Below, piece by piece: positions 1 through 22,891 of a stretch of DNA of 22,891 bases. Position 1 is the first letter of the stretch; every line of letters begins with the position of its first letter. The DNA is from a virus. The notes under the pieces are model-generated. The model ran no database searches. It saw nothing but the letters and a program-made list of their open reading frames with translations, and was not told where the DNA came from. The stretch lies in the IMG/VR virus record IMGVR_UViG_3300035034_000790, positions 1 to 22,891 of that record. One strand, given 5' to 3'. A program made the position numbers and the translations under genes.

Positions 1-1271
1 GCTCCATCGGTTGACGGTATACGCCCATCTCTAGCTCTATTCACAATAGTTGTTGCTCGCCTACCGCTTATGGCTCTTGAGGTTGAGGCTGTGCCAGTGT
101 TTATTTCTGCATCTGATATTTCTGAGTAGGTGGTGTTTGGGGTCGCTAGATTGCCTGAGCCAAGTAACGTCGTGCCATTTACGGTTTTAATGCTTGTCCC
201 AGAAACTAGAGTATTTTGTTTGCCAGAGAGGTCTTGGTCGCCTGAGTTAGTTCCACTGGTGTTACCTACTACTATCTTCTTGGCATCGGTTACATAGTTA
301 TCATCTGCACCAAGAGCGGCAGCGTAGTCTGCTGAACTGAAGGCTTTAACCTGTGCAAGATTGGTTACTTCTGAATCCATAAGTGCGCCAGCACTAGTCA
401 CGTTTGTAGTGTTGGTTACATTTGCGTTGGTTTCAATAGTCGCAAGCTTAGTAGACGCAGAGCTAGGGTAGGTTATCTTGGCGTTGTTGGCAGTAATGTC
501 GGAAGCTTGTGTACCTGTTATTCCTACTTTTGCATTATTAGTAGCAATATTACTCTCCATAGTGTCTAGGTTTACAGCTTGAGTAACAGATATATGACCT
601 ACTTTGGTTGCATCGCCTGATGGATAGGTGTTCTTGGCGGTGTTGGCTGTTACTGCTGAGTCATAAGTTGTGTTTACTGCGTTGTTGTTTGAGTTGTCAG
701 TACCAGCTACGTCTACGTTTAGGTTAGTTCGGGAAGTGGCTGCGCTTGCTACATCTGAGAGGTTAGCGGTGGATAGCATGTCCCCGCCGCCAGATGGAGA
801 CTGCCAGCTATAGTCATAATCTGCACCAGAGTCTTTCACTAGTTGCTGGTTGGTTGAACCACCTGTCGGTAGGCTCGCACCGTCAGCTCCAGGGTTGCCC
901 TGTATGCCCTGGATGCCCTGTATGCCCTGGTCTCCAGTGTCGCCCTTAGCCCCAGATGAGCCGTCAGCTCCCCTAGCCCCCGTGTCTCCCTTGCTACCAG
1001 GAAGCCCTGTAGCACCGTCAGCTCCATCTGCCCCAGCTAGCCCTGTGCTGCCTTTTAGACCTGTGCTGCCTGTGTCACCCTTGTCGCCCTTGTCGCCCTT
1101 AATCCCTTCGGTGAAGTAGGCTAAGTCGCTCCACGCTGTAGCCCCGTCACCGTACTTAACTTTGCCTGTGTCAGTCTCATAGCCAGGCTCACCCGTAGCC
1201 AAAACTGGGTTAGCAAGAGTCCAGTCAGCCGAGGTGCCCCGTCGTACCTGGATTTGGTTGTACCGAGACAT
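1..1271 (-). CDS. Collagen-like tail fiber / receptor-binding protein, C-terminus off the left edge
   Basis: Translated by hand from the ATG at 1271; the frame stays open to base 1 (423 codons), so the stop and C-terminus are missing. Residues 6-53 (IQVRRGTSADW..., YGDGATAWSDL) resemble the N-terminal domain of major-tropism-determinant-type fibers, which usually anchors the fiber to the virion. Residues 56-131 are about 25 collagen-like Gly-X-Y triplets (GDKGDKGDTG, GIQGIQGIQG), expected to form a trimeric rod. Next come fiber linker motifs (DSGADYDYSWQSPS, LSDVASAATSRTNL) and a Thr/Asn/Ala-rich shaft with loosely repeated TANNAK / TNNAK segments around residues 215-275. The host-binding tip would lie beyond the window. 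The ATG overlaps the upstream adaptor's TGA by one base (TGATG), so the two are probably co-translated. Fiber identity is inferred from domain pattern and position; the receptor is unknown. Confidence 0.85.
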   Translation of the reverse strand, partial: MSRYNQIQVRRGTSADWTLANPVLATGEPGYETDTGKVKYGDGATAWSDLAYFTEGIKGDKGDKGDTGSTGLKGSTGLAGADGADGATGLPGSKGDTGARGADGSSGAKGDTGDQGIQGIQGIQGNPGADGASLPTGGSTNQQLVKDSGADYDYSWQSPSGGGDMLSTANLSDVASAATSRTNLNVDVAGTDNSNNNAVNTTYDSAVTANTAKNTYPSGDATKVGHISVTQAVNLDTMESNIATNNAKVGITGTQASDITANNAKITYPSSASTKLATIETNANVTNTTNVTSAGALMDSEVTNLAQVKAFSSADYAAALGADDNYVTDAKKIVVGNTSGTNSGDQDLSGKQNTLVSGTSIKTVNGTTLLGSGNLATPNTTYSEISDAEINTGTASTSRAISGRRATTIVNRARDGRIPSTDG

Positions 1272-2021: not shown

Positions 2022-2285
2022 TTACCTCAACTCGTTTTTTATTTTTTCTAGTATCTCTACAAGGTCTGCACTCAGGTCAAGCTGGTAGTCAGCCGCCCGC
2101 TTGTGCTCTTTTGCCGTCTCTCGGACGGCTTTGGTTGACTCGTGTCTCCCAATGTATTTGTCCAGGACTGCGTGTAGCTTGTCTTTTTCGCTGCGCTTGG
2201 CAGTAGCAGCTTTCTCGCCCTCAGTAGCAGCGAATACATCCCTATTGGCTCTCTGGAGCTCTTCACTGGACTGGTACTCATCCAT
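2022..2285 (-). CDS. Small charged helical protein between portal and adaptor
   Basis: 87 residues, almost entirely charged and predicted helical (EELQRANRDVFAATEGEKAA, ending LVEILEKIKNELR), with no hydrophobic segment or cysteine. The ATG at 2285 overlaps the portal stop by one base (TAATG), which implies translational coupling to the portal. I do not recognise a family. A role in head-tail joining or as a small chaperone is possible from position alone. The reverse-strand frame over the same bases (2101-2322) lacks the tight coupling seen here. Confidence 0.75.
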   Translation of the reverse strand: MDEYQSSEELQRANRDVFAATEGEKAATAKRSEKDKLHAVLDKYIGRHESTKAVRETAKEHKRAADYQLDLSADLVEILEKIKNELR

Positions 2286-4174
2286 TACATCATCTCCTGT
2301 GGAGGTGCTGGGTTGTCCATAGCAGCCTGTACCGCTACGTCTTCAGCTGTTAGCTCGATACCGTACTTGCCAGCTGCCTGAATCTTGCCAGAGGCGGGTA
2401 GGTCTTTGAACGCAATGTTGACTGTTGGTGCTTTCACCTCGTCCATCTTGGCGTTGTCTTTCTCGGTCTGCTGCATAGCCATTTGTTTGGCTTGCTCTTC
2501 TTCCTGTGTGACTTGTTCTAAAGCCTGTTCCATAACTTCGGCTATCTTAGCGCTACTCTCTAGGTTAGAACTCTTAGTCATCTCTCTCATCAATAGTGGC
2601 ATTACAGAACGCATTACCTTAGCCATATTAGGGTCTGACTTAGCTGCCTCGAAGAAGCCAGTCATGAATGTGTTGAGCCTCTTCAGGTCTTCTTCCTTAG
2701 CCATATCTCGTGTGCTCTCGAAGTTGACGGTGATGTTCACACCTCTCATATCGGTCAAGTCTAGTCTGACTTGGTTCTTGTCATTGATGAAGTTGCCTGA
2801 CTCATCCGCTTCACGGACTAGGTTAGCGTACTCTTCGTCCAGTTCAACCATTGGTACTGCGTTGTTCCTCTCGGAGATAGCCTTAACTTCGGCGAGGTAG
2901 ATGTTGATTTTATTCTCTAGGTTCATCTCGAAATACTGCTCATAGTTCTTGCGGTAATAGTTATTCTCTATGTCAGCCTTCTGTGACTGGTCATTTACAC
3001 CCGCTTGAGTTTTAGAGAAGGTGGGGTCTCCCGAGCCTGACGAAATGCTACTATCACTCGAGGCAGGGAGCGAGGTTAGTAGAACAGTCTTTAACAGGTT
3101 GTACAGACTCGGGAAGTTCTGAATAGTCGATGTGTCGATTGGTAGTAGGTCTACCTCTCCGTCTTCGTCGTTTAGGAACATGGTGTTGCCCTTGGTCAGA
3201 GTGAAGGTATCTTCGTTCAGAGAGATGCCCTTGACGGTCTTAGCTGGGTCTGTGTTGTAGTCAGAAGTGTAGACGAAGTTGCGTAGCAGTGAAGTTAGGG
3301 ACTGCTGTGCGCCGTAAGCCATGTCAATCAGTGAGCGACCCATAATAGACGAGCCGTCATAGTCAGAATAAAGTGCCACGACACGCCGACGACCACTCAG
3401 GTTAGGTATAACCCTCAAGATAGTGCCTGATGAGTAGTGCCAGGTGATAAGCCATTTAGAGTCAGTGTAGACGAATAGCTCGTACATGTGCTCTGGCAAG
3501 CCTTCCATAGAAGCCTTGATGTTCTTGTTCTGGTTGCCTGAGTTCGACCCAGTACCGTAGTCAAGAACCTCCTGTAGCCCCTTTTTGTCCCAAGTCCCGC
3601 CGACTTCGTCGTCTTCACCAGCGATTAGGAGCTTGATGTCATCTTCAGTTTTGAGGCTTCGGAACTGGACGAAGTTAGAGCTGTTGATGTTGGTCGACCA
3701 GGCTTCAGGGTATAGGTCGCCCCAGTAGATAGGAGTCTCACCGACAGTGTACTCACCGTGGTCGTTCTCGAATGGTAGGTAGGATGCACTTGCACCGAAG
3801 GTGGCAGCATTTCGGAGCTCTATCCACTGCTTCTGTAACAGACCGTAGCCCTTAGATGAACCGCTCTGTAGTAGGATTTTGACGGCAATATACTCATAGA
3901 CTAGGTCTTCTGCCTTGCTGCGAGTATGAGCGTCCACCACGAACGTAGGCATCTTCTGTACCACGTTCTTGGGCATCTTCTCAAGGTAGGAAGCTAGTGT
4001 GTTATCCACAAGGTCGGCGTATTCCATCTGGCCATTCGTGTTGACTGGTGGTTTTCGGTAGAAAATACGTTCGTTACGCTCCATGAACCCAGCTGTAACT
4101 CTATCCATGAACTCCTGGCTGTCGTCGAGCTTCTTGGCCAGTTGTTCTCCTGTGAATGGGTAATTGTTTTGCAT
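2285..4174 (-). CDS. Portal protein
   Basis: 629 residues, in the size range of podovirus portals. The portal is the twelve-subunit ring at one capsid vertex through which DNA is packaged and ejected. The N-terminal third is helical and acidic. A central segment (residues about 245-330: TDSKWLITWHYSSG, RRRVVALYSDYDGSSIMGRS, then MAYGAQQSLTSLLRNF) fits the portal wing/stem pattern, including the G-R-S/L-I-D-M-A-Y-x-x-Q-Q helix. A Ser-rich loop (ASSDSSISSGSGDPTFSKTQ) precedes a long helical region, and the C-terminus is Gln/Glu/Met-rich (about residues 540-570), consistent with a crown or barrel. A Shine-Dalgarno (AAGAAGGA) precedes the ATG. The gene lies after the capsid and giant virion genes rather than between terminase and scaffold. 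The call rests on overall pattern and the rest of the set being present with no other portal candidate. Confidence 0.85.
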   Translation of the reverse strand: MQNNYPFTGEQLAKKLDDSQEFMDRVTAGFMERNERIFYRKPPVNTNGQMEYADLVDNTLASYLEKMPKNVVQKMPTFVVDAHTRSKAEDLVYEYIAVKILLQSGSSKGYGLLQKQWIELRNAATFGASASYLPFENDHGEYTVGETPIYWGDLYPEAWSTNINSSNFVQFRSLKTEDDIKLLIAGEDDEVGGTWDKKGLQEVLDYGTGSNSGNQNKNIKASMEGLPEHMYELFVYTDSKWLITWHYSSGTILRVIPNLSGRRRVVALYSDYDGSSIMGRSLIDMAYGAQQSLTSLLRNFVYTSDYNTDPAKTVKGISLNEDTFTLTKGNTMFLNDEDGEVDLLPIDTSTIQNFPSLYNLLKTVLLTSLPASSDSSISSGSGDPTFSKTQAGVNDQSQKADIENNYYRKNYEQYFEMNLENKINIYLAEVKAISERNNAVPMVELDEEYANLVREADESGNFINDKNQVRLDLTDMRGVNITVNFESTRDMAKEEDLKRLNTFMTGFFEAAKSDPNMAKVMRSVMPLLMREMTKSSNLESSAKIAEVMEQALEQVTQEEEQAKQMAMQQTEKDNAKMDEVKAPTVNIAFKDLPASGKIQAAGKYGIELTAEDVAVQAAMDNPAPPQEMM

Positions 4175-4208: not shown

Positions 4209-7200
4209 CTAGATAGTCCTGTTGGCGTAATTCTGTGTTTTATCCTTCTTAATTGCGTTCCCGAGCTTCACCTGAGCCTTGAATGGTGTGTATGTGCCCT
4301 TCTTGGTCTTAGCCATCTGGCGAGCCTGTACTGGAGTCCACTTGACACTGCTGCTACCTCTGTCGCCAGGCTTGTTACTAGCACCCAGACCGCTGCCTCC
4401 ACCGCCTCCGCCCCAAGAGCTGAAGCCACTGCCTGATTTTGGGTACTCTGAAGCTGGTGTTTTGCCCTTGCTGCCGAGCAAGCTGTTAAGGGCGTTCCAT
4501 AGGTATGTCTGACCAGATTTAGTTGAGCCTAGCCCGTCTGCGTCGAAGAACCCTGTGCTGTCCAGCTCTTCCATTAGGGCAGACAACATCTGGTAGCCCT
4601 CTGAGTTGCTCAATATAGAGGTGTACTCCTCCTCGCTCTCGGCTTTAAGGGCTGAATACTCGTCGTAGCTTATCTCTTTAGCTTTGAACCTACCGTATAG
4701 GGCTGTGTTCGCCTGGGAGATTTCGTACATTCTGTCTCTCTCTGCCTCTGGTAGGTCTGTCTGGGCGATAGCATTGGTAATAGACTGCATTGATATAGGC
4801 AGACTAGAGTTCTTAGTGCCGTTCTTGTTAGGCACTGACACGTCAGAGTAGAGGTTTTTGCCGTCTAGCATCAGCAGTGCGCTGGCATCACCACCGAAGA
4901 AGGCATCCTGGATTTGGCTAGACAGAGCAGCTAGCTTGTCGTTCTTTTCTAGTTTCTTGCTGTTGTCCACAACTTTCTTGCCGTCCTCGTCCTCTTCAGT
5001 GTCCAAGAACGTGATAGAGCCCTGCAATGACCTGAAGTTGTTATTCTCGCCAGTGTCGTAGGTGTTGAACATATCCTGGGTGGCACTACCTATGTCGTTG
5101 TTGCGACCATACCTCACCAGTTCGCTGACTCTCTCGTCAAATTCGGCTGTGTTAGGGTCGTTGATGGTCTTGTTTATCACGACACCCTGGTTGTCGGCAG
5201 TCCTGACACGCCCAGCGTTGTCTCGGCTGTCCTTCAGACTGTTGTAGAACTCAGGGTCATAGCTCTTACGCACACTGTTACTGAACCACTTGAGAGGGTT
5301 CTCGTCGTAGCTAGACTTAGCGTTGACGCTCTCGCCCTTGGCTGCCTTGACTTGCTGGTAGATACCGTTGTTAGACCAAGGGACTAGAGACCTGGCAGCG
5401 TTCACTCCGTATGCTTTGGCTGCGTAGCCACCGTCACCGTTTTTGCCGCCGAGATTAGTCAAAGAGTTCGTAGCCCCAGTTGTCTGCTCAAAGGCATTAA
5501 TGTACGGGACGCTCCTGGTGATGATGCCGCCGTAGAAGCCTGGGTCTCTAGCCTCGCCCTTGGCTATGTCACCCACTATCCGAGACGCAGCGACAGTAAC
5601 CGCTAGAGGGAACTCGATAGGTGTGGCACGGATTGGGATGTACTGGTTGTCGCCAATCTTGATTGAAATACCCTGCGGGATGTCCACCTCGTCGCCGTCG
5701 TTGTAGACGATGATGTTGTCGTTCACAAGCACAGCTGCGCCAGTTAGTAGCCCGTAGTCCACCAGTTTGTTCTTCAAGATGTTCATAGTGTTCCTACCAC
5801 CGCTAAGTTGGTCGGCACGGATTTGGTCGAGCACGCTCTTAGAGACTGGGTTCAGTGTGCGAGTTACACCTGTGCTCGACAAGTTCCATGCAGTTCTAAC
5901 ATAAGGGAACACGTTGCTCAACATGGCGTTGGCGATTCGCCCCTTCTTAGTTTCGCCCTCAAAAACACCCTTCATCATCTTGGCTGCTAGAGTTGACTGT
6001 CTCTCGACCTGTTTCTCAAATTCAATCATGTCGGACGTTTCAGCGGTCTCTATCCACTTCTTCCAGGCTTTAAGCGTCTTCATAGCGTGGCTGCTGCTGA
6101 CCATACCGTTGTCTACACCAGCGAGGGTATTAGCCATTGACTCTGTGTGGTTAGACAGTGTCCTGGACAGGCTCTCAGCCTGTGCATTTGTCAGGTCTCT
6201 ACCCTCTATTTTCTTCATTGCCCACTTAGTCAGCTCGGTACGCATACCACCGACACGAGCCTTCTGCCCCGCAGATACAGGTGTCATAGCAGTTTTATAA
6301 GTGTTACCAAGGATATATTTATACCCCTCGCTAACAGTTGTCGGTGTTGTTTTCCAGCCGTCAATAGAAGACTTGCCCTCAGCCTTCAACAACCTGCCGT
6401 TTTTAGTTGCCCCCCTGTACGTCTTGATTGGGTTTTTGAGCACACTAATGAAGTCAGCCCCGACTTCCTGGACTAAGTTCCTGCTGACATTGCCTGTGCT
6501 GGAGAGCATGTTCGCCATGCGACCAGCAGTGACGTTCTCGACTGTCTGGGTAACTTTCTCGCCCAAAGAGCCCTTTCGCTTAATCTTCCTCAACCGTGAG
6601 TCAAGCCTCTGTTGCAATAGAGCCTCCCTGCGGGTGTCCCTGTTCCTGAGTCTGTTCATCTCTTCGTTGACACTGTCGCCGACTTTACCAGTCTTGTCGC
6701 CTTTGTAGTCTTTTCGGTTTTGCTTCTGGGTCTTAGCATTTCTATTGTAAATCTCTTCAAGCTCATCGTATATTTTAGTTATTCTTGCAACTTCTTTAGG
6801 CTTGAGGTTGCTCTCGGAGGGTATCGCCTGGAGCTCAGATGAGCCATCTTTGCCCATACCGACGGCTTCAGCTATCCTGCCTTTAACGCCTGAAGGGTCG
6901 CCAGTCTTCATCATCACACGCTCAAAGCCCTTTGGCTTAGGTGCTGCCTTAGCCTTCGTGGTCGGTGCTACGCCCATACCCTCTGGGAGGGAGCTAGTTG
7001 GGGTCACATTCTTGCCCAGCGGTTTCTGCTTAGTCATCTTGAGACCTTTGTCGACCTCGTGCATAGCTCGGTCTAGCTGCTTGACATAGTCGACAGCGTC
7101 GAAGTCTTTGCGCTTATAAACGGCTGCCGTTGTGAGTGCCTCTCTAACATCGGTGAAAAATGCCTTGACGTATCTCAACACGCCCTTGCCGAGCGTACCC

Positions 7201-9860
7201 GCTTTGATGCGCCCGTCTAAGAGCAAGTCCATAGCGTGTGCGACATACTCTTCAACATTCTTAGCCCCAGAATCTTGGAGCTGTTGCCTACCAACCTCTT
7301 CGGGTGTGATGTCTTTGCGGAGTTTCTGCAACTCAACCATCCTGGGGTTATCACCTTTATAGTCCTTTATAGCAAGGTCGATGTGGTGGACTGTCTCGTG
7401 GTAGACGGAGCGTTTTTCCTTGAAGTCGATACGTTTAGTACCACGGTTGTAAGTCCCGAACGCCTGTCCAGTTGTGCTGTCTAGCCGTTTACCACCTTTC
7501 CCTGGCTGATTGCCGATAAGGGCAGGAGAGATGTCTTCACCACTAGAGCGGCTGAAGGCTTGCAATAACTCGGTAGCGGGGTGGACTTCAGCCTTACCTG
7601 TCTTGGGGTCAACGTGGTAGATAGTATTAGCCTCACCGCTCCTGAGTATGTCTGCGTTCTTCTTGTAGTTCTCGGCGAATGTAGTCCCAACTGTTCGTCT
7701 ACCCATACGGACTGGAGTGCCCGACGCAAGATGCCCAGCTATTTCTTCGACGAAGTCAGCACCCTCATTGCGCTGTCTCTGCCAGTCTGGGACTGTGCCT
7801 GTGTCTGTATCTAGGTTGTCTCTAGCCGTCTGTGACTGTAATGCAGCCCCAGTGAGCTCCTTCGGCTTCTTGCCAAAACCGTCGTCCATAAGTCTTCGGT
7901 CAAACACGTCTGCCAACCCCTTAGATGTCTTAGGCATATCTAGCCCGTAATACTCAGCAATCCGTGCAGCGTCCAGCTCTAGCGCACGTTTAGCTTCACC
8001 TTTCACCTTGTACACGCCACGCTGCATATCAATAAAGTCACGCATAGTGCCCTGGTCTTCTTGGTGTATTTTCTTCCTGCTCTTAATAGCAGGAGTAGCT
8101 GGGTCAAGGGTTTGTAGCTTCTGGTTGATAACCGCCTCTTGAGCCTGTGATTTGCCAGGGATAGAGTCACGGAGAGCCTGTGCTTGCTCCGCTTTAGGGA
8201 CTTGGACATTAGGGTCTGGGGCAGCCACAGGAGCGACTGTCTCTAGGGCTGGTGCGTCGAGTTTAGCCTTTACAGCCAGCTCGTCGTTGGTGAGCACCCT
8301 GTCCTTAGCCTCTGCGCTTAATTGCTCCTTGAGGTTGGTCGGTACGTCAGCGGTGGTGGGGGTATAGTCAGTGCCTCGGGTATTGATACGGGGGGAGACA
8401 GGGGTGACAGCCCTGCTAGCGACATCGCCAGTGACGGGGGTGAGCTTAGGTTCGTTCACGAGGCGGGCGCTAGCCTCGTCAGATATCTTCGTATTTATCT
8501 CTGGGGTATTGCCTCTGCCCTTGAACCCTCTTATACCTCCAGCGGCGACGGATAGACCAGCACCACCAGCGACACCTAGAGCACCAGCTTTTGCCGTCTG
8601 GGAGGCTAGTTCAGCGAATAGGTCGGGTGAGAACTCACCGTTTTCGTCACGCAAAGCACCGCCGTTACCGAAGTATTCAGCAGCACCCTGTGCAGCGTTC
8701 TCCCCACCTTCCACCAGGGAAGGGATAACATATTGAGTGGCTAGTTTCTTGAACAGTGTTTTCTCCGCTTGGGTAGCCGTTTTAGCGATCACCTTGCTCG
8801 ACAACGACTCGAGCAGCTTACCGCTCCCACCAAGGAATGCACCGACTATGTCGATTCCACCAGCGACACCACGCCCAGCCCTCTCAGACTTATTCAAGTC
8901 TCTCTGATAACCAGTATTATAATCTGTACCGTGTCCAGAGATAGCCTCTTTGGCTGACTTAGCCCCCAGAGGGAGGGCAGTTGCTACGCCCTGACCAAAG
9001 TTACCACCAAAACGAAGAACGTCCCCGAAGCTAGTCCCGTCGAGCTTGTCGTCCACTCCAGCGACAGAGTCGAACACGCTCGCCTGTCTTAGGACGTTTG
9101 TTGCGTTTTTAAGCCGAGTCCCATAGCCCTCAGCAGGGTCTATACCGTCGGCGATAGTCCCCCAGAAGCCCCTTCTGTGTGCAGGTGTAGAGCGGTTTTT
9201 GTCTCCCCCAATAGCACGGAGGTTAGCCATGCTGCGGAGAGAGTTCTGTTCAGCCAGACCAGAGTTGTATGCACTAAGTTTGCGAGCCTGTACCCCAGCT
9301 CCCTCGTCGAGCACGTTACCGTCATCGTCATAAGCCTTGTGAACCATCTCGTTCGTGTATTTGTTGCGGGCTAGCACTTCGGCTCGGCGTGAAGCGTCTC
9401 CACCGTCCATAAGGCGACCCCAGAAGCCTAGGTTGTCTTTTTCTTGCTTGAATGTGTCGTCATAATACTTCCTCCAGCCATCGTCCTGCTTTATAGCCTC
9501 GACATCAAGAGGCTGCGACTGTTGCTGCTGGGCTTGTCGTTGGCTGTCAGCATAGGCTGCCTGGGCTGATGCCTGGGCTGCTGCCTGTCTGCGAGCCTCC
9601 GCTGCCTCTGCCTCTCTTTGCTTCCTCTGTGCGTCTGCTTGAGCCTTCTGGGGGGACATAAAGTAGCTCTGCTCCGCTCGAGACTGCTGTGGCTTCTGGG
9701 CTTGCCCTTTAGTCACGCCGTCTGTGGCTACTGCTGCGTTTGCACCGCTAGCCGATGGCTGCCACGAACCCTCCTGTAGAGACTTGACTTTAGCTACCTG
9801 TGGGGTGGCGAATAAATCATCTTTTTTTTCTTCCCCGTCGTCCCAGCTCATCAATGCCAT
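4209..9860 (-). CDS. Giant virion (ejection / polyvalent-type) protein with HExxH metallopeptidase motif
   Basis: 1,883 residues, about a quarter of the window. Residues about 55-120 are Gln/Ala/Arg-rich and probably coiled coil. Residues about 285-430 hold Gly/Ala-rich amphipathic or membrane-active stretches (GVAGGIDIVGAFLGGSGK; GALGVAGGAGLSVAAGG). A zinc-protease-like motif HETVHHID spans 821-828 (H821, E822, H825), with EEYVAHAMD at about 870-878 as a possible third-ligand glutamate. The C-terminal third is helical and ends in a Gly-run linker (GGGGGG) and a basic tail. These features match large phage internal or polyvalent proteins that are packaged in the head and injected with DNA. 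The promoter at 9895-9903 and the AAGGA Shine-Dalgarno before 9860 support this start. The motif is visible; protease activity and ejection are inferred. A tape-measure role is less likely given the motif and gene order. Confidence 0.8.
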   Translation of the reverse strand: MALMSWDDGEEKKDDLFATPQVAKVKSLQEGSWQPSASGANAAVATDGVTKGQAQKPQQSRAEQSYFMSPQKAQADAQRKQREAEAAEARRQAAAQASAQAAYADSQRQAQQQQSQPLDVEAIKQDDGWRKYYDDTFKQEKDNLGFWGRLMDGGDASRRAEVLARNKYTNEMVHKAYDDDGNVLDEGAGVQARKLSAYNSGLAEQNSLRSMANLRAIGGDKNRSTPAHRRGFWGTIADGIDPAEGYGTRLKNATNVLRQASVFDSVAGVDDKLDGTSFGDVLRFGGNFGQGVATALPLGAKSAKEAISGHGTDYNTGYQRDLNKSERAGRGVAGGIDIVGAFLGGSGKLLESLSSKVIAKTATQAEKTLFKKLATQYVIPSLVEGGENAAQGAAEYFGNGGALRDENGEFSPDLFAELASQTAKAGALGVAGGAGLSVAAGGIRGFKGRGNTPEINTKISDEASARLVNEPKLTPVTGDVASRAVTPVSPRINTRGTDYTPTTADVPTNLKEQLSAEAKDRVLTNDELAVKAKLDAPALETVAPVAAPDPNVQVPKAEQAQALRDSIPGKSQAQEAVINQKLQTLDPATPAIKSRKKIHQEDQGTMRDFIDMQRGVYKVKGEAKRALELDAARIAEYYGLDMPKTSKGLADVFDRRLMDDGFGKKPKELTGAALQSQTARDNLDTDTGTVPDWQRQRNEGADFVEEIAGHLASGTPVRMGRRTVGTTFAENYKKNADILRSGEANTIYHVDPKTGKAEVHPATELLQAFSRSSGEDISPALIGNQPGKGGKRLDSTTGQAFGTYNRGTKRIDFKEKRSVYHETVHHIDLAIKDYKGDNPRMVELQKLRKDITPEEVGRQQLQDSGAKNVEEYVAHAMDLLLDGRIKAGTLGKGVLRYVKAFFTDVREALTTAAVYKRKDFDAVDYVKQLDRAMHEVDKGLKMTKQKPLGKNVTPTSSLPEGMGVAPTTKAKAAPKPKGFERVMMKTGDPSGVKGRIAEAVGMGKDGSSELQAIPSESNLKPKEVARITKIYDELEEIYNRNAKTQKQNRKDYKGDKTGKVGDSVNEEMNRLRNRDTRREALLQQRLDSRLRKIKRKGSLGEKVTQTVENVTAGRMANMLSSTGNVSRNLVQEVGADFISVLKNPIKTYRGATKNGRLLKAEGKSSIDGWKTTPTTVSEGYKYILGNTYKTAMTPVSAGQKARVGGMRTELTKWAMKKIEGRDLTNAQAESLSRTLSNHTESMANTLAGVDNGMVSSSHAMKTLKAWKKWIETAETSDMIEFEKQVERQSTLAAKMMKGVFEGETKKGRIANAMLSNVFPYVRTAWNLSSTGVTRTLNPVSKSVLDQIRADQLSGGRNTMNILKNKLVDYGLLTGAAVLVNDNIIVYNDGDEVDIPQGISIKIGDNQYIPIRATPIEFPLAVTVAASRIVGDIAKGEARDPGFYGGIITRSVPYINAFEQTTGATNSLTNLGGKNGDGGYAAKAYGVNAARSLVPWSNNGIYQQVKAAKGESVNAKSSYDENPLKWFSNSVRKSYDPEFYNSLKDSRDNAGRVRTADNQGVVINKTINDPNTAEFDERVSELVRYGRNNDIGSATQDMFNTYDTGENNNFRSLQGSITFLDTEEDEDGKKVVDNSKKLEKNDKLAALSSQIQDAFFGGDASALLMLDGKNLYSDVSVPNKNGTKNSSLPISMQSITNAIAQTDLPEAERDRMYEISQANTALYGRFKAKEISYDEYSALKAESEEEYTSILSNSEGYQMLSALMEELDSTGFFDADGLGSTKSGQTYLWNALNSLLGSKGKTPASEYPKSGSGFSSWGGGGGGSGLGASNKPGDRGSSSVKWTPVQARQMAKTKKGTYTPFKAQVKLGNAIKKDKTQNYANRTI

Positions 9861-9968: not shown

Positions 9969-10799
9969 TTAACTAGCTACGATAGTTGAAACACCCAATT
10001 TCTTAGGAGTAGATACGACACAAGTGTACATATATAGACATAGTAGTAGTGAACCGAATGCCGCTGCACTTTCGCCAACCTTAGAATCGTCTAAGAATCG
10101 AGGAGCAGATACAACTGCTGGGTTTACCACAATCATACCAGTGTTAGATGGCATTAGGTCAGATGGAACTTCTTTAATCTTAATCCCAGCTACCATACCG
10201 ATGTCACCAGTACGCATAGTCTTCTCAGTACCTTGTACATAAGGGACTAGGTGGTCGCTTAGGCGAATGCTGTCAGCTGTAGTCGTGTTGACATAACCGA
10301 GCATATTCTTTCCAAGACGAGCGTTTATTAGGAACGCACGAGCTGTAAGAGTATCTGCATAGCCGTCTGCTGTAGCTACAGTGTCTTGTGAGTTAACAAC
10401 TGATACTGCTGCAAGTATACCAAGACGATAAGCGTCAATTAGTGGTACAAGCTGTTCTGAAACAATAGCACTAAGGACTTTTCCACCTTCTGTGATGCTG
10501 TTGTTAGTTGCGATAACAGTTCGGTCTAGGAACTGCTTGATGTCTTTTTGCTGGTCAAGTGTGTAGGTAGCGATTGTTGAATCGACGTTAACGATACCAC
10601 CGATTTGCGTACTGAATGTTTCAGTAGCGTCGTGGGTAGTAACCGCACCAGCTGTAACAACTGTACGAACCTTAACTACTTTAGAACCTTTTTCAAATTT
10701 GATTTCTTTGTTATTGCCTTCAAGCTCTTTTGTGTAACTTTCGTCGTCAAAAGGCTGGTCAATCACGGGTGAGTAAATCTCTGAAGCTGTAATAGCCAT
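9969..10799 (-). CDS. Major capsid protein
   Basis: 276 residues, small for an HK97-fold capsid but within range for a short-tailed phage. It begins MAITASEIYSPVIDQPFDDE and has alternating strands and helices, including a long helix around residues 95-135 (ITEGGKVLSAIVSEQLVPLI) that could be the HK97 spine helix, and a late segment (NTGMIVVNPAVVSAPRF) typical of the capsid-core A domain. The C-terminus holds two cysteines in a hydrophobic strand (LLLCLYMYTCVV). It follows the scaffold candidate and is the only gene with its own promoter upstream and its own terminator downstream, as expected for the most abundant virion protein. The ATG has AGAAGGA upstream. Identity is inferred from position, size and regulation. 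Confidence 0.82.
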   Translation of the reverse strand: MAITASEIYSPVIDQPFDDESYTKELEGNNKEIKFEKGSKVVKVRTVVTAGAVTTHDATETFSTQIGGIVNVDSTIATYTLDQQKDIKQFLDRTVIATNNSITEGGKVLSAIVSEQLVPLIDAYRLGILAAVSVVNSQDTVATADGYADTLTARAFLINARLGKNMLGYVNTTTADSIRLSDHLVPYVQGTEKTMRTGDIGMVAGIKIKEVPSDLMPSNTGMIVVNPAVVSAPRFLDDSKVGESAAAFGSLLLCLYMYTCVVSTPKKLGVSTIVAS

Positions 10800-12708: not shown

Positions 12709-14136
12709 TTATACAAACATACTAAATGTGCTGTTTTCGTCTTTCCCTCCCAATAAAAGCTCGCTTTTGATTAAGTTCTCGAACCGCTCCTGTTTAGCTT
12801 CTTTCGTGTCCTTGACCTCGGACGGGTCTGTCACCCTGGACTTAGAGAACACGTTTTTGGCTGTAATCCTGTATTTACCTATCGCCTGTCCCATATAGCA
12901 AAGGGAGTCGACGGTGTCAGAGTAGCCCCCGACGTGAGTTGGCTTAGACGACCAGAGGTGCAGACGCTCGTTCCACTCGTACTCCAGCTTGTCTAAACAA
13001 TCTACGAGGCGGGTCAGCCCCTCATCTATCCTCATGCCGACGAAGATGCGGCGCAAGTGGTTCAACTTATCCTCGACACGGTTAGGTCTAGGCAGGACGA
13101 CAGTGTTGGCGACACCCTCGTTGAACAGCGCAGCTTTATAGCTCTCGTTGCGAGCACCCTTCCTGTGGGCAGCGTCGTGAGGCAGAAAGTGGGTGGCTAC
13201 GTTCCAGCTGCGCTCTTTCCACTCCCCGATATACCAGGTGACATCCTCGTTGCGGTTCTCTATGTGGTCAATAATAGACGGGAATCCGTTTTCGTCCACC
13301 TGGAATAGCACGATAGAGGTGTAGTCGGCGTTACCTAAGTCAAATGCGGTGTAGTACGGCTGGGACTCGTCGCCGACCACCTGGGTGACTCTGCCCTGTT
13401 CTTTCATAATCTTGGACAAGTCGCCGAATACTGAACCAGAGTTAGGCGAAATCCAGCTGGTCATATACTCCTGTTGGTACAGGGCATCATTGCCGTATTT
13501 GCTGATAATCTTGAGTCGCTCCTGCTCCAAGAACCCTGTCGCCATATACTGAGAGACCTCTTCCATCCCACAGTGCATATTGCTGACATAGGCGAACTCG
13601 GGGTGGGCTAGCCCGAAGTTGTACTCATCGAAGAAGTGGTTTTTGCCACGAGGGGTAGAAATCATCACTCGCCAGCCACCAGTTTCGGCAAGCATGGCTG
13701 TGACAAACTCGATAGAGGCAGGGTTCAGGACGGCGAACTCATCGAACACCACGCCGTTAAGCCCAGCACCGACCAGCTTGTCAGCCTTGTTGACACCGAC
13801 CAGCTTAATCACCGAGCCATTAACAAGCTCAATTTCCATCTTGGCAGAGTTCATCCTGACCACTATATCGGGCGGTATCATATCCAGAAACTTCAGCCCC
13901 TTAGAGGTCATCGCTATCCAGATGTCGTTATAAGCCGTGGCGTAGTTGTCGAAACAGTACCAATATGTGCCAGGTTTGTCGATTGCCTCTCTGATGAGTA
14001 GATTCCAGGCGAACAGGGACTTCCCCGCTCGACGAGACCAGCAGAGGACGATAAACCGCAGACCATTGTCAAAAGCCTTCATGACTGCCTTCTGGTAGGT
14101 ACGGAGGATTATACCCCCACCGATATTAAATCTCAT
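12709..14136 (-). CDS. terL: Terminase large subunit (packaging ATPase/nuclease)
   Basis: 475 residues with the full two-domain layout. ATPase: Walker A SRRAGKS at 34-40, Walker B VVFDEF at 129-134 (D132, catalytic E133) and the coupling motif STPRG at 160-164. RNase-H-like nuclease: first acidic residue D267 in YTAFDLGNADYTS, and a late aspartate in GGYSDTVDSL. The enzyme docks on the portal, drives DNA into the procapsid and cuts it. An adenine-binding Q (Q15) precedes Walker A, with the short N-terminus typical of many podovirus terminases. The ATG overlaps the small-subunit TGA by four bases (ATGA), so the pair is translationally coupled. Confidence 0.97.
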   Translation of the reverse strand: MRFNIGGGIILRTYQKAVMKAFDNGLRFIVLCWSRRAGKSLFAWNLLIREAIDKPGTYWYCFDNYATAYNDIWIAMTSKGLKFLDMIPPDIVVRMNSAKMEIELVNGSVIKLVGVNKADKLVGAGLNGVVFDEFAVLNPASIEFVTAMLAETGGWRVMISTPRGKNHFFDEYNFGLAHPEFAYVSNMHCGMEEVSQYMATGFLEQERLKIISKYGNDALYQQEYMTSWISPNSGSVFGDLSKIMKEQGRVTQVVGDESQPYYTAFDLGNADYTSIVLFQVDENGFPSIIDHIENRNEDVTWYIGEWKERSWNVATHFLPHDAAHRKGARNESYKAALFNEGVANTVVLPRPNRVEDKLNHLRRIFVGMRIDEGLTRLVDCLDKLEYEWNERLHLWSSKPTHVGGYSDTVDSLCYMGQAIGKYRITAKNVFSKSRVTDPSEVKDTKEAKQERFENLIKSELLLGGKDENSTFSMFV

Positions 14137-21212: not shown

Positions 21213-22406
21213 GTGAGCCCACTATACCCTAGCCAGGACGACTACTTGTCCAGGCTAGGCAGCAGACCATATATGTTCTGTGGCACTGGAGCGGGTAAGA
21301 CCAGAATGGCAATGGTCAGGGCTAAACGGCTAGGCTTCGGTAAAGTTCTGGTCATAGCCCCAGCCACAGTCAGGGACACAGGGCAGTGGCAAAAGGAATT
21401 AAAAGAGATAGGGCTAGAGTTCGAGGAATTTCAAGTAGAGGGCTTCAGTTTTCTACAGAAGTACAAGAGCCTGGACTTCTCACAGTATGCCGAGCACTAC
21501 GTCATTATCGACGAGGCACATAAAATCAAGAACTCACAGAGTAAGCAAGGTCAGGGAGCGTGGTATTTATGCAACCTGGCTGGAGACTACTCACTACTCA
21601 GTGCCACGCCGATGAGCGACTGGGCAGGGGCAGTGAACTACGCCAAGATAACAGGGCTAGTGAAACACAAGACCGAATTTTACAAGCGGTATGTGATTGA
21701 GGAACGGAGCTATGCCCATAAAGGAATGGACGTGGTCGGCTACAGGGACACAGACGAACTCGTTGCCTGGTGGGACAGCATTGCACTACGGGGACGGTCA
21801 GAGGATTTTGTGGAGCTACCAGAGAAACAGATAATCAATGTGGACATACCGATTAAGAGGAGGGACTACGCACAGATGATTAAAACCAGAATGAGGGGCG
21901 ACGAGCCTCTAGACTCAGCACCAAAATTGAATTGGGCACTCAGGGCTCATGCCGAGGCAGCACCCGAGAAGTTGGCTTGGGTGGTGGACAAGGTGGACGG
22001 GCTAGAAAACTGCATTGTGTTTGTGAACACAATAGCGGCACTGGAGGCATTAAGCGAAAAATTCGACAACGCCAAGATTAAATATGGCGTGTGGTACGGC
22101 AAAAAGAAGGACAAATTTGAAGACCAGAATGTGATGATTGTGCAATACCAGAGTGGTGGCACGGGGCTCAATTTGCAGAAATTTAATGCGACCATATTCT
22201 TATCGCCGACGTACAGCTACACAGACCACCACCAGGCTACGGGCAGGACGCACAGGACAGGGCAGACTAGACGGTGCACGTTTTACCAGCTCAAGGCAAA
22301 TAATACGATTGACGGGGCTATATATAAAGCGTTAGGAGAGAAGAAGGATTTTGACGATAAACTAACAGGCTCTAAAGAAGCCGATTGGATGAAGGTAATG
22401 GGATGA
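21213..22406 (+). CDS. SNF2-family superfamily 2 helicase/translocase
   Basis: 397 residues, compact for the family. A Q motif (Q8) precedes motif I GTGAGKT (24-30). Then motif II DEAH (100-103), motif III SATP (130-133), motif V GGTGLN (about 317-322) and motif VI QATGRTHRTGQ (341-351). All catalytic residues are intact, so it should be an active ATP-driven DNA translocase. Phages carry such enzymes in replication or recombination modules. It starts at GTG (21213), which keeps the Q motif; AAGG lies upstream. No nuclease, methyltransferase or other fused domain is present. Its ATGA overlap with the next micro-ORF is noted below. Partners beyond the right edge are unseen. Confidence 0.92.
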   Translation: MSPLYPSQDDYLSRLGSRPYMFCGTGAGKTRMAMVRAKRLGFGKVLVIAPATVRDTGQWQKELKEIGLEFEEFQVEGFSFLQKYKSLDFSQYAEHYVIIDEAHKIKNSQSKQGQGAWYLCNLAGDYSLLSATPMSDWAGAVNYAKITGLVKHKTEFYKRYVIEERSYAHKGMDVVGYRDTDELVAWWDSIALRGRSEDFVELPEKQIINVDIPIKRRDYAQMIKTRMRGDEPLDSAPKLNWALRAHAEAAPEKLAWVVDKVDGLENCIVFVNTIAALEALSEKFDNAKIKYGVWYGKKKDKFEDQNVMIVQYQSGGTGLNLQKFNATIFLSPTYSYTDHHQATGRTHRTGQTRRCTFYQLKANNTIDGAIYKALGEKKDFDDKLTGSKEADWMKVMG

Positions 22407-22452: not shown

Positions 22453-22891
22453 ATGAGTAAATTAACAAAAGAACAAGCCCTAGCAAAGATTGAAGAATTA
22501 AAGAAGTACGTTGATCAAGTTGATGTAAACACTGATTTTCTTAATGGTATAGCTATTAAATCACGATATGACGGGAGTATCATTTACCAATCTACAAAGC
22601 CAACATTAAAAGAAGCAGTCATTGAGGCAGTGGAAAAAGATGCAAACCTGCGTGGTGCAGACCTGCGTGGTGCAAGCCTAATTGGTGCAGACCTGAGTGG
22701 TGCAGACCTGCGTAGTGCAGACCTGAGTGGTGCAGACCTGAGTGATGCAAGCCTGCGTGGTGCAAGCCTGAGTGGTGCAAACCTGCGTCGTGCAGACCTG
22801 AGCCGTGCAGACCTGAGCCGTGCATACCTGACTGGTGCAGAATTACAAAACGCCAAGTTCTACGGCAAAGGTGGTGCTAAAGAATTAAAAA
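22453..22891 (+). CDS. Pentapeptide-repeat protein, C-terminus off the right edge
   Basis: Translated by hand from the ATG at 22453; open to the window end (146 codons). An N-terminal helix (KLTKEQALAKIEELKKYVDQ) and a linker (LKEAVIEAVEKD) lead into fifteen consecutive pentapeptides at residues 64-138 of the pattern A-(D/N/S)-L-x-x, such as ADLSG and ANLRG. Such repeats fold into a square right-handed beta-helix. In Qnr/MfpA-type proteins it mimics DNA and binds gyrase; many phage members have no known function. Codon use is unlike the neighbours (CTG for nearly all repeat leucines where they use CTA/TTA, plus GTT and GAT in the N-terminal part), and one of three GATC sites is here (22513-22516). 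This hints at recent acquisition. Shine-Dalgarno AAGGAG precedes the ATG. Confidence 0.88.
   Translation, partial: MSKLTKEQALAKIEELKKYVDQVDVNTDFLNGIAIKSRYDGSIIYQSTKPTLKEAVIEAVEKDANLRGADLRGASLIGADLSGADLRSADLSGADLSDASLRGASLSGANLRRADLSRADLSRAYLTGAELQNAKFYGKGGAKELK
22642..22866 (+). repeat. Fifteen tandem 15-base units coding pentapeptides
   Basis: 225 bases of imperfect GCAGACCTGAGTGGT-like units inside the pentapeptide gene, starting at GCAAACCTGCGTGGT. Near-identity between units makes expansion or contraction by slippage likely. Confidence 0.9.

What the first reader, a model, noticed from the sequence alone, without database searches (positions are those of the whole stretch)
4209..9860. 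1,883-residue virion protein with an intact HExxH site
The protein combines a coiled-coil N-terminus, membrane-active Gly/Ala stretches and an HETVHHID motif (821-828) with a possible third-ligand Glu near 870. It sits between capsid and portal genes. A packaged zinc peptidase injected with DNA could process virion proteins or disable a host defence on entry. Multi-domain 'polyvalent' phage proteins are known, but this arrangement and its target are not evident.
Basis: partly seen in the sequence, partly recalled or inferred. Interest (0 to 1): 0.65.

Follow-up and report, generated by a model that had tools for sequence, protein, structure and literature searches.

The report
Phage cargo protein with swappable protease
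An uncultured phage encodes a giant protein, probably carried in the virus head and shot into the bacterium, with a slot that holds a predicted zinc protease here and other or no modules in sister phages; such multi-part proteins are already known, but this family is undescribed.

Summary
The ORF is real: minus strand, 9860..4209, 1,883 aa, between the major capsid and portal genes. HETVHHID lies at 821-828 and Glu870/871 in NVEEYVAHAM. No library searched holds the protein. Counting the window, ten complete orthologs are known, all on IMG/VR contigs. The N-terminal tip (1-40) and the C-terminal part (about 960-1883) are shared. Residues 601 to about 975 are a module that eight of the ten lack. 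At the same site one ortholog (L004) has a different HExxH module, homologous to the zincin-like end of crAss001 gp47, a virion cargo protein by mass spectrometry. L017 has an unknown module there, and L001 an ART-like one about 60 residues upstream. Best reading: a head-internal, ejected 'polyvalent' protein with an exchangeable effector slot, filled here by a divergent zincin-type peptidase. Because it is dispensable across orthologs, a host target is likelier than processing of its own virion. That the window module is a zincin rests on motif and context: profile comparison did not clearly beat shuffles that keep the motif, and both structure predictions were poor. Virion location, zinc binding and catalysis are untested. 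Polyvalent proteins with metallopeptidases and mosaic orthologs are known (PMC5512222), so this is a new member of a known kind.

The parts
4209..9860 (-). 1,883-aa polyvalent/ejection-type protein, whole ORF
   Evidence: nine further complete orthologs in the same place between MCP and portal
9021..9860 (-). N-terminal part, residues 1-280: conserved tip (1-40), Ala/Gln-rich helix-prone stretch (60-118), start of the class A part (about 121-440, shared with L004, L002, L009 and L016 only)
8532..8867 (-). residues 332-443, containing the Gly/Ala-rich hydrophobic stretches 332-350 and 425-443; possible membrane interaction
   Evidence: hydropathy; no experimental support
8061..8531 (-). flexible Pro/Thr/Ala-rich linker, residues 444-600, containing the conserved motif SQAxEAxINQxLQ near its end
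6936..8060 (-). exchangeable module, residues 601 to about 975, with the predicted zincin
   Evidence: mostly without counterpart in eight of ten orthologs
7377..7400 (-). HETVHHID, residues 821-828: HExxH plus Asp three residues after it
7248..7253 (-). Glu870-Glu871, candidate third zinc ligand, in a helix predicted at pLDDT about 81
4209..6713 (-). C-terminal conserved part, residues 1050-1883, mostly helical, 38-53% identical among orthologs
9969..10799 (-). major capsid protein gene
   Evidence: PHROG 422, 1.6e-22; 75-86% identity to relatives
2285..4174 (-). portal protein gene
   Evidence: 74-82% identity to relatives
12709..14136 (-). terminase large subunit gene
   Evidence: PF03237 2e-10, PHROG 2 2e-26

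Best explanation
The ORF encodes a head-internal protein that is packed with the genome and ejected through the portal and tail. Its conserved N-terminal tip and C-terminal part are the carrier: packaging, passage and probably membrane contact. A site in the flexible linker between them is an effector slot. In this phage the slot holds a divergent zincin-type metallopeptidase (H821, H825 and E870 or E871 as ligands, E822 as base). After ejection it would refold in the host and cut a host protein, perhaps one that blocks the incoming phage. Shown: the ORF, its neighbours, the orthologs, and the slot with different or no contents. Inferred: virion location, ejection, zinc binding, catalysis, and the host target, for which there is no direct evidence.
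For: Gene position between MCP and portal in all complete relatives. MCP and portal are 74-86% identical to those of relatives, while the big protein is 36-50% with a clean gap at 601-960. Ten complete orthologs hold four longer inserts (window zincin-like, L004 zincin, L001 ART-like, L017 unknown) with no blastp similarity between them. The L004 module matches the zincin-like end of crAss001 gp47 and relatives (tblastn 0.01; hhalign probability 96.8); gp47 was found in virions by mass spectrometry (PMC10172136). The window module has HExxH, the +3 Asp described for a phage-type group of polyvalent metallopeptidases (PMC5512222), and a Glu 45 residues after the second His in [ED]YxAxA context, with chance about 1e-4, post hoc. 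In comparisons with crAss and N4 zincin profiles the upstream strand and HExxH align in the expected register. Absence of any HExxH in eight orthologs argues against a needed processing role.
Against: The window module matches no family (Pfam, PHROGs, NCBIfam, PDB) and has no relatives in phages, plasmids or viral contigs. Against zincin profiles it beats all full shuffles for one family only (crAss), and 3, 19 and 23 of 60 motif-keeping shuffles do as well for crAss, N4 and P1 DdrB. The AlphaFold2 model is poor (mean pLDDT 47; HExxH helix below 50) and fold searches gave nothing. The C-terminal model is poor too. No virion proteomics exist. Only one phage carries this module.
Confidence: 0.5

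Rival explanations
1. The zincin is an autoprocessing or maturation peptidase: it cuts its own chain, or other head proteins, before packaging or after ejection, as proposed for P1 DdrB.
For: PMC5512222 proposes autoproteolysis for P1 DdrB and release of domains for others; flexible linkers flank the module; many orthologs carry a repeated PVADGVVxP motif in the linker that could be a cut site.
Against: Eight of ten orthologs have no HExxH yet keep the same carrier; the linker motif is absent in the window, and in most orthologs it occurs without any peptidase; N4 vRNAP with a comparable domain is packaged uncut (PMC5512222).
Confidence: 0.22
2. The module is a zincin-like fold without catalysis, kept as a spacer, binding domain or regulator, as the CTD of N4 vRNAP inhibits its polymerase.
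For: The N4 CTD, which includes an HExxH subdomain, represses transcription (PMC12633501); no demonstrated proteolysis by such a virion zincin was met in the passages read.
Against: HExxH, the +3 Asp and a placed Glu are all intact; this protein has no recognisable polymerase to regulate.
Confidence: 0.13
3. HETVHHID is a chance motif in an unrelated helical module of unknown function.
For: No family match; the score against zincin profiles comes mostly from the motif; the confident part of the model is a plain helical bundle.
Against: Chance of HExxH plus the Glu context about 1e-4 (post hoc); +3 Asp; same insertion site as a module in L004 that is clearly zincin-like.
Confidence: 0.15

Closest known systems
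Zincin-like MPTase domains of polyvalent proteins (Iyer et al. 2017, PMC5512222)
   Same: HExxH, Asp three residues on, Glu in a later predicted helix; one part of a large protein encoded among virion genes; mosaic orthologs are described (jhp1044 of Helicobacter phages).
   Different: No sequence match at family level; only one recognisable enzymatic module here; carrier parts not described in the libraries searched.
crAss001 gp47 and relatives (virion cargo, 'RNA-polymerase subunit' by annotation)
   Same: The sister module of L004 is homologous to the gp47 C-terminal HEAFH region; gp47 is a virion cargo protein by mass spectrometry (PMC10172136).
   Different: The window module is not detectably homologous to gp47; the rest of the proteins differ; gp47 carries the zincin at its C-terminus, here it is in the middle.
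Phage N4 virion RNA polymerase gp50, C1 subdomain
   Same: Giant virion protein with an HExxH subdomain after a flexible linker, ejected into the host (PMC12633501).
   Different: No polymerase module here; no profile similarity beyond the motif.
Phage P1 DdrB
   Same: HELGHHLE resembles HETVHHID; head-associated protein with a possible metallopeptidase.
   Different: C-terminal, not internal; profile similarity not above motif-keeping shuffles.

Membership tests
Zincin-like MPTase of polyvalent proteins | HExxH motif | tested here: met
   HETVH at 821-825
Zincin-like MPTase of polyvalent proteins | Glu in a following helix as third zinc ligand | tested here: inconclusive
   E870/E871 in a predicted helix, but geometry to the His pair not modelled with confidence
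Zincin-like MPTase of polyvalent proteins | Asp three residues after HExxH (one widespread phage-type group) | tested here: met
   D828; feature from PMC5512222
Zincin-like MPTase of polyvalent proteins | three-stranded sheet with flanking helices | tested here: inconclusive
   poor model, fold searches uninformative
Zincin-like MPTase of polyvalent proteins | profile similarity to known members | tested here: inconclusive
   crAss profile above all full shuffles, but 3/60, 19/60 and 23/60 motif-keeping shuffles score as high for crAss, N4 and DdrB
Zincin-like MPTase of polyvalent proteins | zinc binding and proteolysis | not testable with these tools
   needs biochemistry
Polyvalent proteins of phages | several domains of different biochemistry in one chain | tested here: inconclusive
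   one recognisable enzymatic module here; different modules across orthologs
Polyvalent proteins of phages | encoded among late virion genes | tested here: met
   between MCP and portal
Polyvalent proteins of phages | present in the virion and transferred into the host | not testable with these tools
   needs virion proteomics and infection experiments
N4-type virion RNA polymerase | single-subunit RNA polymerase module | tested here: not met
   no polymerase family in Pfam, PHROGs or NCBIfam

The most novel reading that the evidence does not exclude
A phage family keeps one ejected carrier protein with a dedicated effector slot and exchanges enzymes in it (two kinds of zinc peptidase, an ART-like domain, others), each delivered on entry against a host target; the window phage's peptidase is a new, otherwise unseen zincin that disables a host defence protein.
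Probability: 0.25. Interest if true: 0.65.

Novelty: new member of a known kind. Interest (0 to 1): 0.42.

Why it matters
If true, the orthologs form a natural experiment: same carrier, same site, different cargo. That would make it possible to ask what ejected phage metallopeptidases cut; the papers read leave this open for N4, crAss-like phages and P1. As it stands the finding adds an undescribed protein family and an orphan peptidase-like module to a known class.

Tried and rejected
Whole protein and module against Pfam, PHROGs, NCBIfam and PDB sequences: nothing useful. Module against phages, plasmids and viral contigs: none. YHExVHHxD as a DNA pattern in viral and bacterial genome collections: nine hits, none of them a recognisable relative. 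Orthologs of the whole protein in bacterial genomes: none. Single-sequence AlphaFold2 of 586-1045 and an 11-sequence run of 1050-1883: poor models. The Foldseek and VIA lists for the first contain no zincin and look like helical chance matches; the second model was too weak to be worth a search. hhalign of the module against N4 and P1 DdrB zincins: at the level of motif-keeping shuffles. GC content of the module does not stand out, so recent foreign origin is not visible that way. The insert of L017 looked by eye like the tail of the L004 module; blastp does not support it. The ART-like reading of L001 rests on motif only; Pfam gave no match.

Full report
Observation. The ORF is on the minus strand of a 22,891-base virus contig, 9860 to 4209, ATG to stop, 1,883 residues. 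It has a single HExxH, HETVHHID at 821-828, and Glu870-Glu871 in NVEEYVAHAMDLLL. The flanking genes are a major capsid protein (PHROG 422, 1.6e-22) and a portal protein (weak but annotated matches in Microbacterium phages). Further genes upstream are an acidic, possibly scaffold protein (inference from position and composition), the large terminase and a DUF5906 primase-like protein. In 20,000 shuffles of the middle region HExxH arises in 0.9%, and the fuller signature in 0.01%, the latter being a pattern fixed after the fact.

Relatives. No annotated phage matches the protein, no PDB chain does, and no bacterial genome contig encodes a relative; the module alone finds nothing in phages or plasmids. 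Relatives came from IMG/VR contigs, first by this protein, then by its alignment, by portal and by capsid, and a later scan returned no contig that had not been found before. Counting the window, ten complete and non-redundant orthologs are available, of 1,480 to 1,883 residues, always between capsid and portal. Capsid (75-86% identity to the window) and portal (74-82%) are well conserved. The big protein is 36-50% identical overall (for the first five).

Anatomy. A table of identity along the window protein shows: a shared tip (1-40); an N-terminal part (about 121-440) shared only with L004, L002, L009 and L016, the others having dissimilar N-terminal parts; a Pro/Thr/Ala-rich linker; a conserved SQAxEAxINQxLQ motif (about 565-590); then 601-960 with no counterpart in most orthologs; then a C-terminal part from about 960 to the end in all, most conserved after 1480. 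The window module is therefore an insertion of about 370 residues relative to most orthologs. At the same place L004 has about 280 residues with FHHEAVH, L017 has 155 residues of unknown kind, L003 and L007 have short inserts, and the others nothing; L001 has about 150 residues with YHG...VYLA...NELIVLDPSKARI, ART-like by eye, about 60 residues upstream. The four longer inserts share no blastp similarity.

The zincin question. The L004 module is homologous to the C-terminal HEAFH region of crAss001 gp47 (tblastn 0.01 at 25% identity; sequence). Against an alignment of 13 crAss-like members hhalign gives probability 96.8, through the HExxH, the LEExxAExFR helix and the LYxDINxGKY tail. gp47 was detected in crAss001 virions by mass spectrometry and is treated as cargo (PMC10172136). 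For the window module the evidence is weaker. HETVHHID has the Asp three residues after HExxH that Iyer and colleagues give for one widespread phage-type group of metallopeptidases (PMC5512222). The strand before it (AFGTYNRGTKRIDF) and the motif fall in the same register as in the crAss and N4 alignments, and the motif itself as in P1 DdrB. But the scores are carried by the motif: 3, 19 and 23 of 60 shuffles that keep the motif do as well. A single-sequence AlphaFold2 model has mean pLDDT 47; the helix with E870 is confident, that with HExxH is not, and structure searches are uninformative. So the assignment is likely, not shown.

How it most likely works. By position, size, apparently helix-rich C-terminal part (poor model) and the gp47 link of its sister, the protein is probably packed in the head and ejected with the DNA, as N4 vRNAP (PMC12633501) and crAss cargo proteins are. 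The slot is dispensable: eight of ten orthologs have no HExxH, while capsid and portal hardly change. A peptidase needed to mature the carrier or the head would not be lost so freely. Exchange at one site for different enzymes is what host-directed effectors show, and PMC5512222 describes such mosaicism among orthologous polyvalent proteins of Helicobacter phages. A host target is therefore favoured; which protein it is remains unknown, and a defence protein is only one option.

Comparison and novelty. It works like a polyvalent protein with a metallopeptidase domain. Membership is partly met: HExxH, +3 Asp and late-gene context yes; fold, third ligand and profile similarity undecided; virion presence and activity untested. 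It is not an N4-type RNA polymerase (no polymerase module found). The carrier family and the module are undescribed in the libraries searched; the principle is known. Hence new member of a known kind, interest moderate.

Limits. All relatives are uncultured metagenome contigs, some incomplete; the module is known from one contig, so an assembly error cannot be excluded, though the frame is open throughout. Nothing here shows zinc, activity, packaging or ejection.

Noticed in passing
L001, L002, L003, L004, L007, L009, L017, L028, linker of the big protein: A short motif PVADGVVxP or close variants occurs one to three times in the linker of these relatives, but not in the window or L019. It could be a cleavage or docking site.
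   Followed up: partly
L001, protein residues 374-526: ART-like insert by motif (YHGS, VYLAENADTAANY, NELIVLDPSKARI); no Pfam match.
   Followed up: partly
L002 8654-9268: A nitroreductase-family gene (PF00881, 3e-16) sits between the capsid gene and the big protein gene.
   Followed up: no
L019 18417-19406: Lysin with GH25 and G5 domains, which suggests a host with a Gram-positive type of wall.
   Followed up: no
[quoted passage not shown]
   Followed up: no
window 22453-22890: Pentapeptide-repeat protein, cut by the contig end (PF00805, 5e-28).
   Followed up: no
window 3-1271: Tail fibre with collagen-like Gly-x-y repeats, cut by the contig end.
   Followed up: no
window 21213-22406: Small (397 aa) SNF2/ResIII-type helicase on the plus strand.
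   Followed up: no
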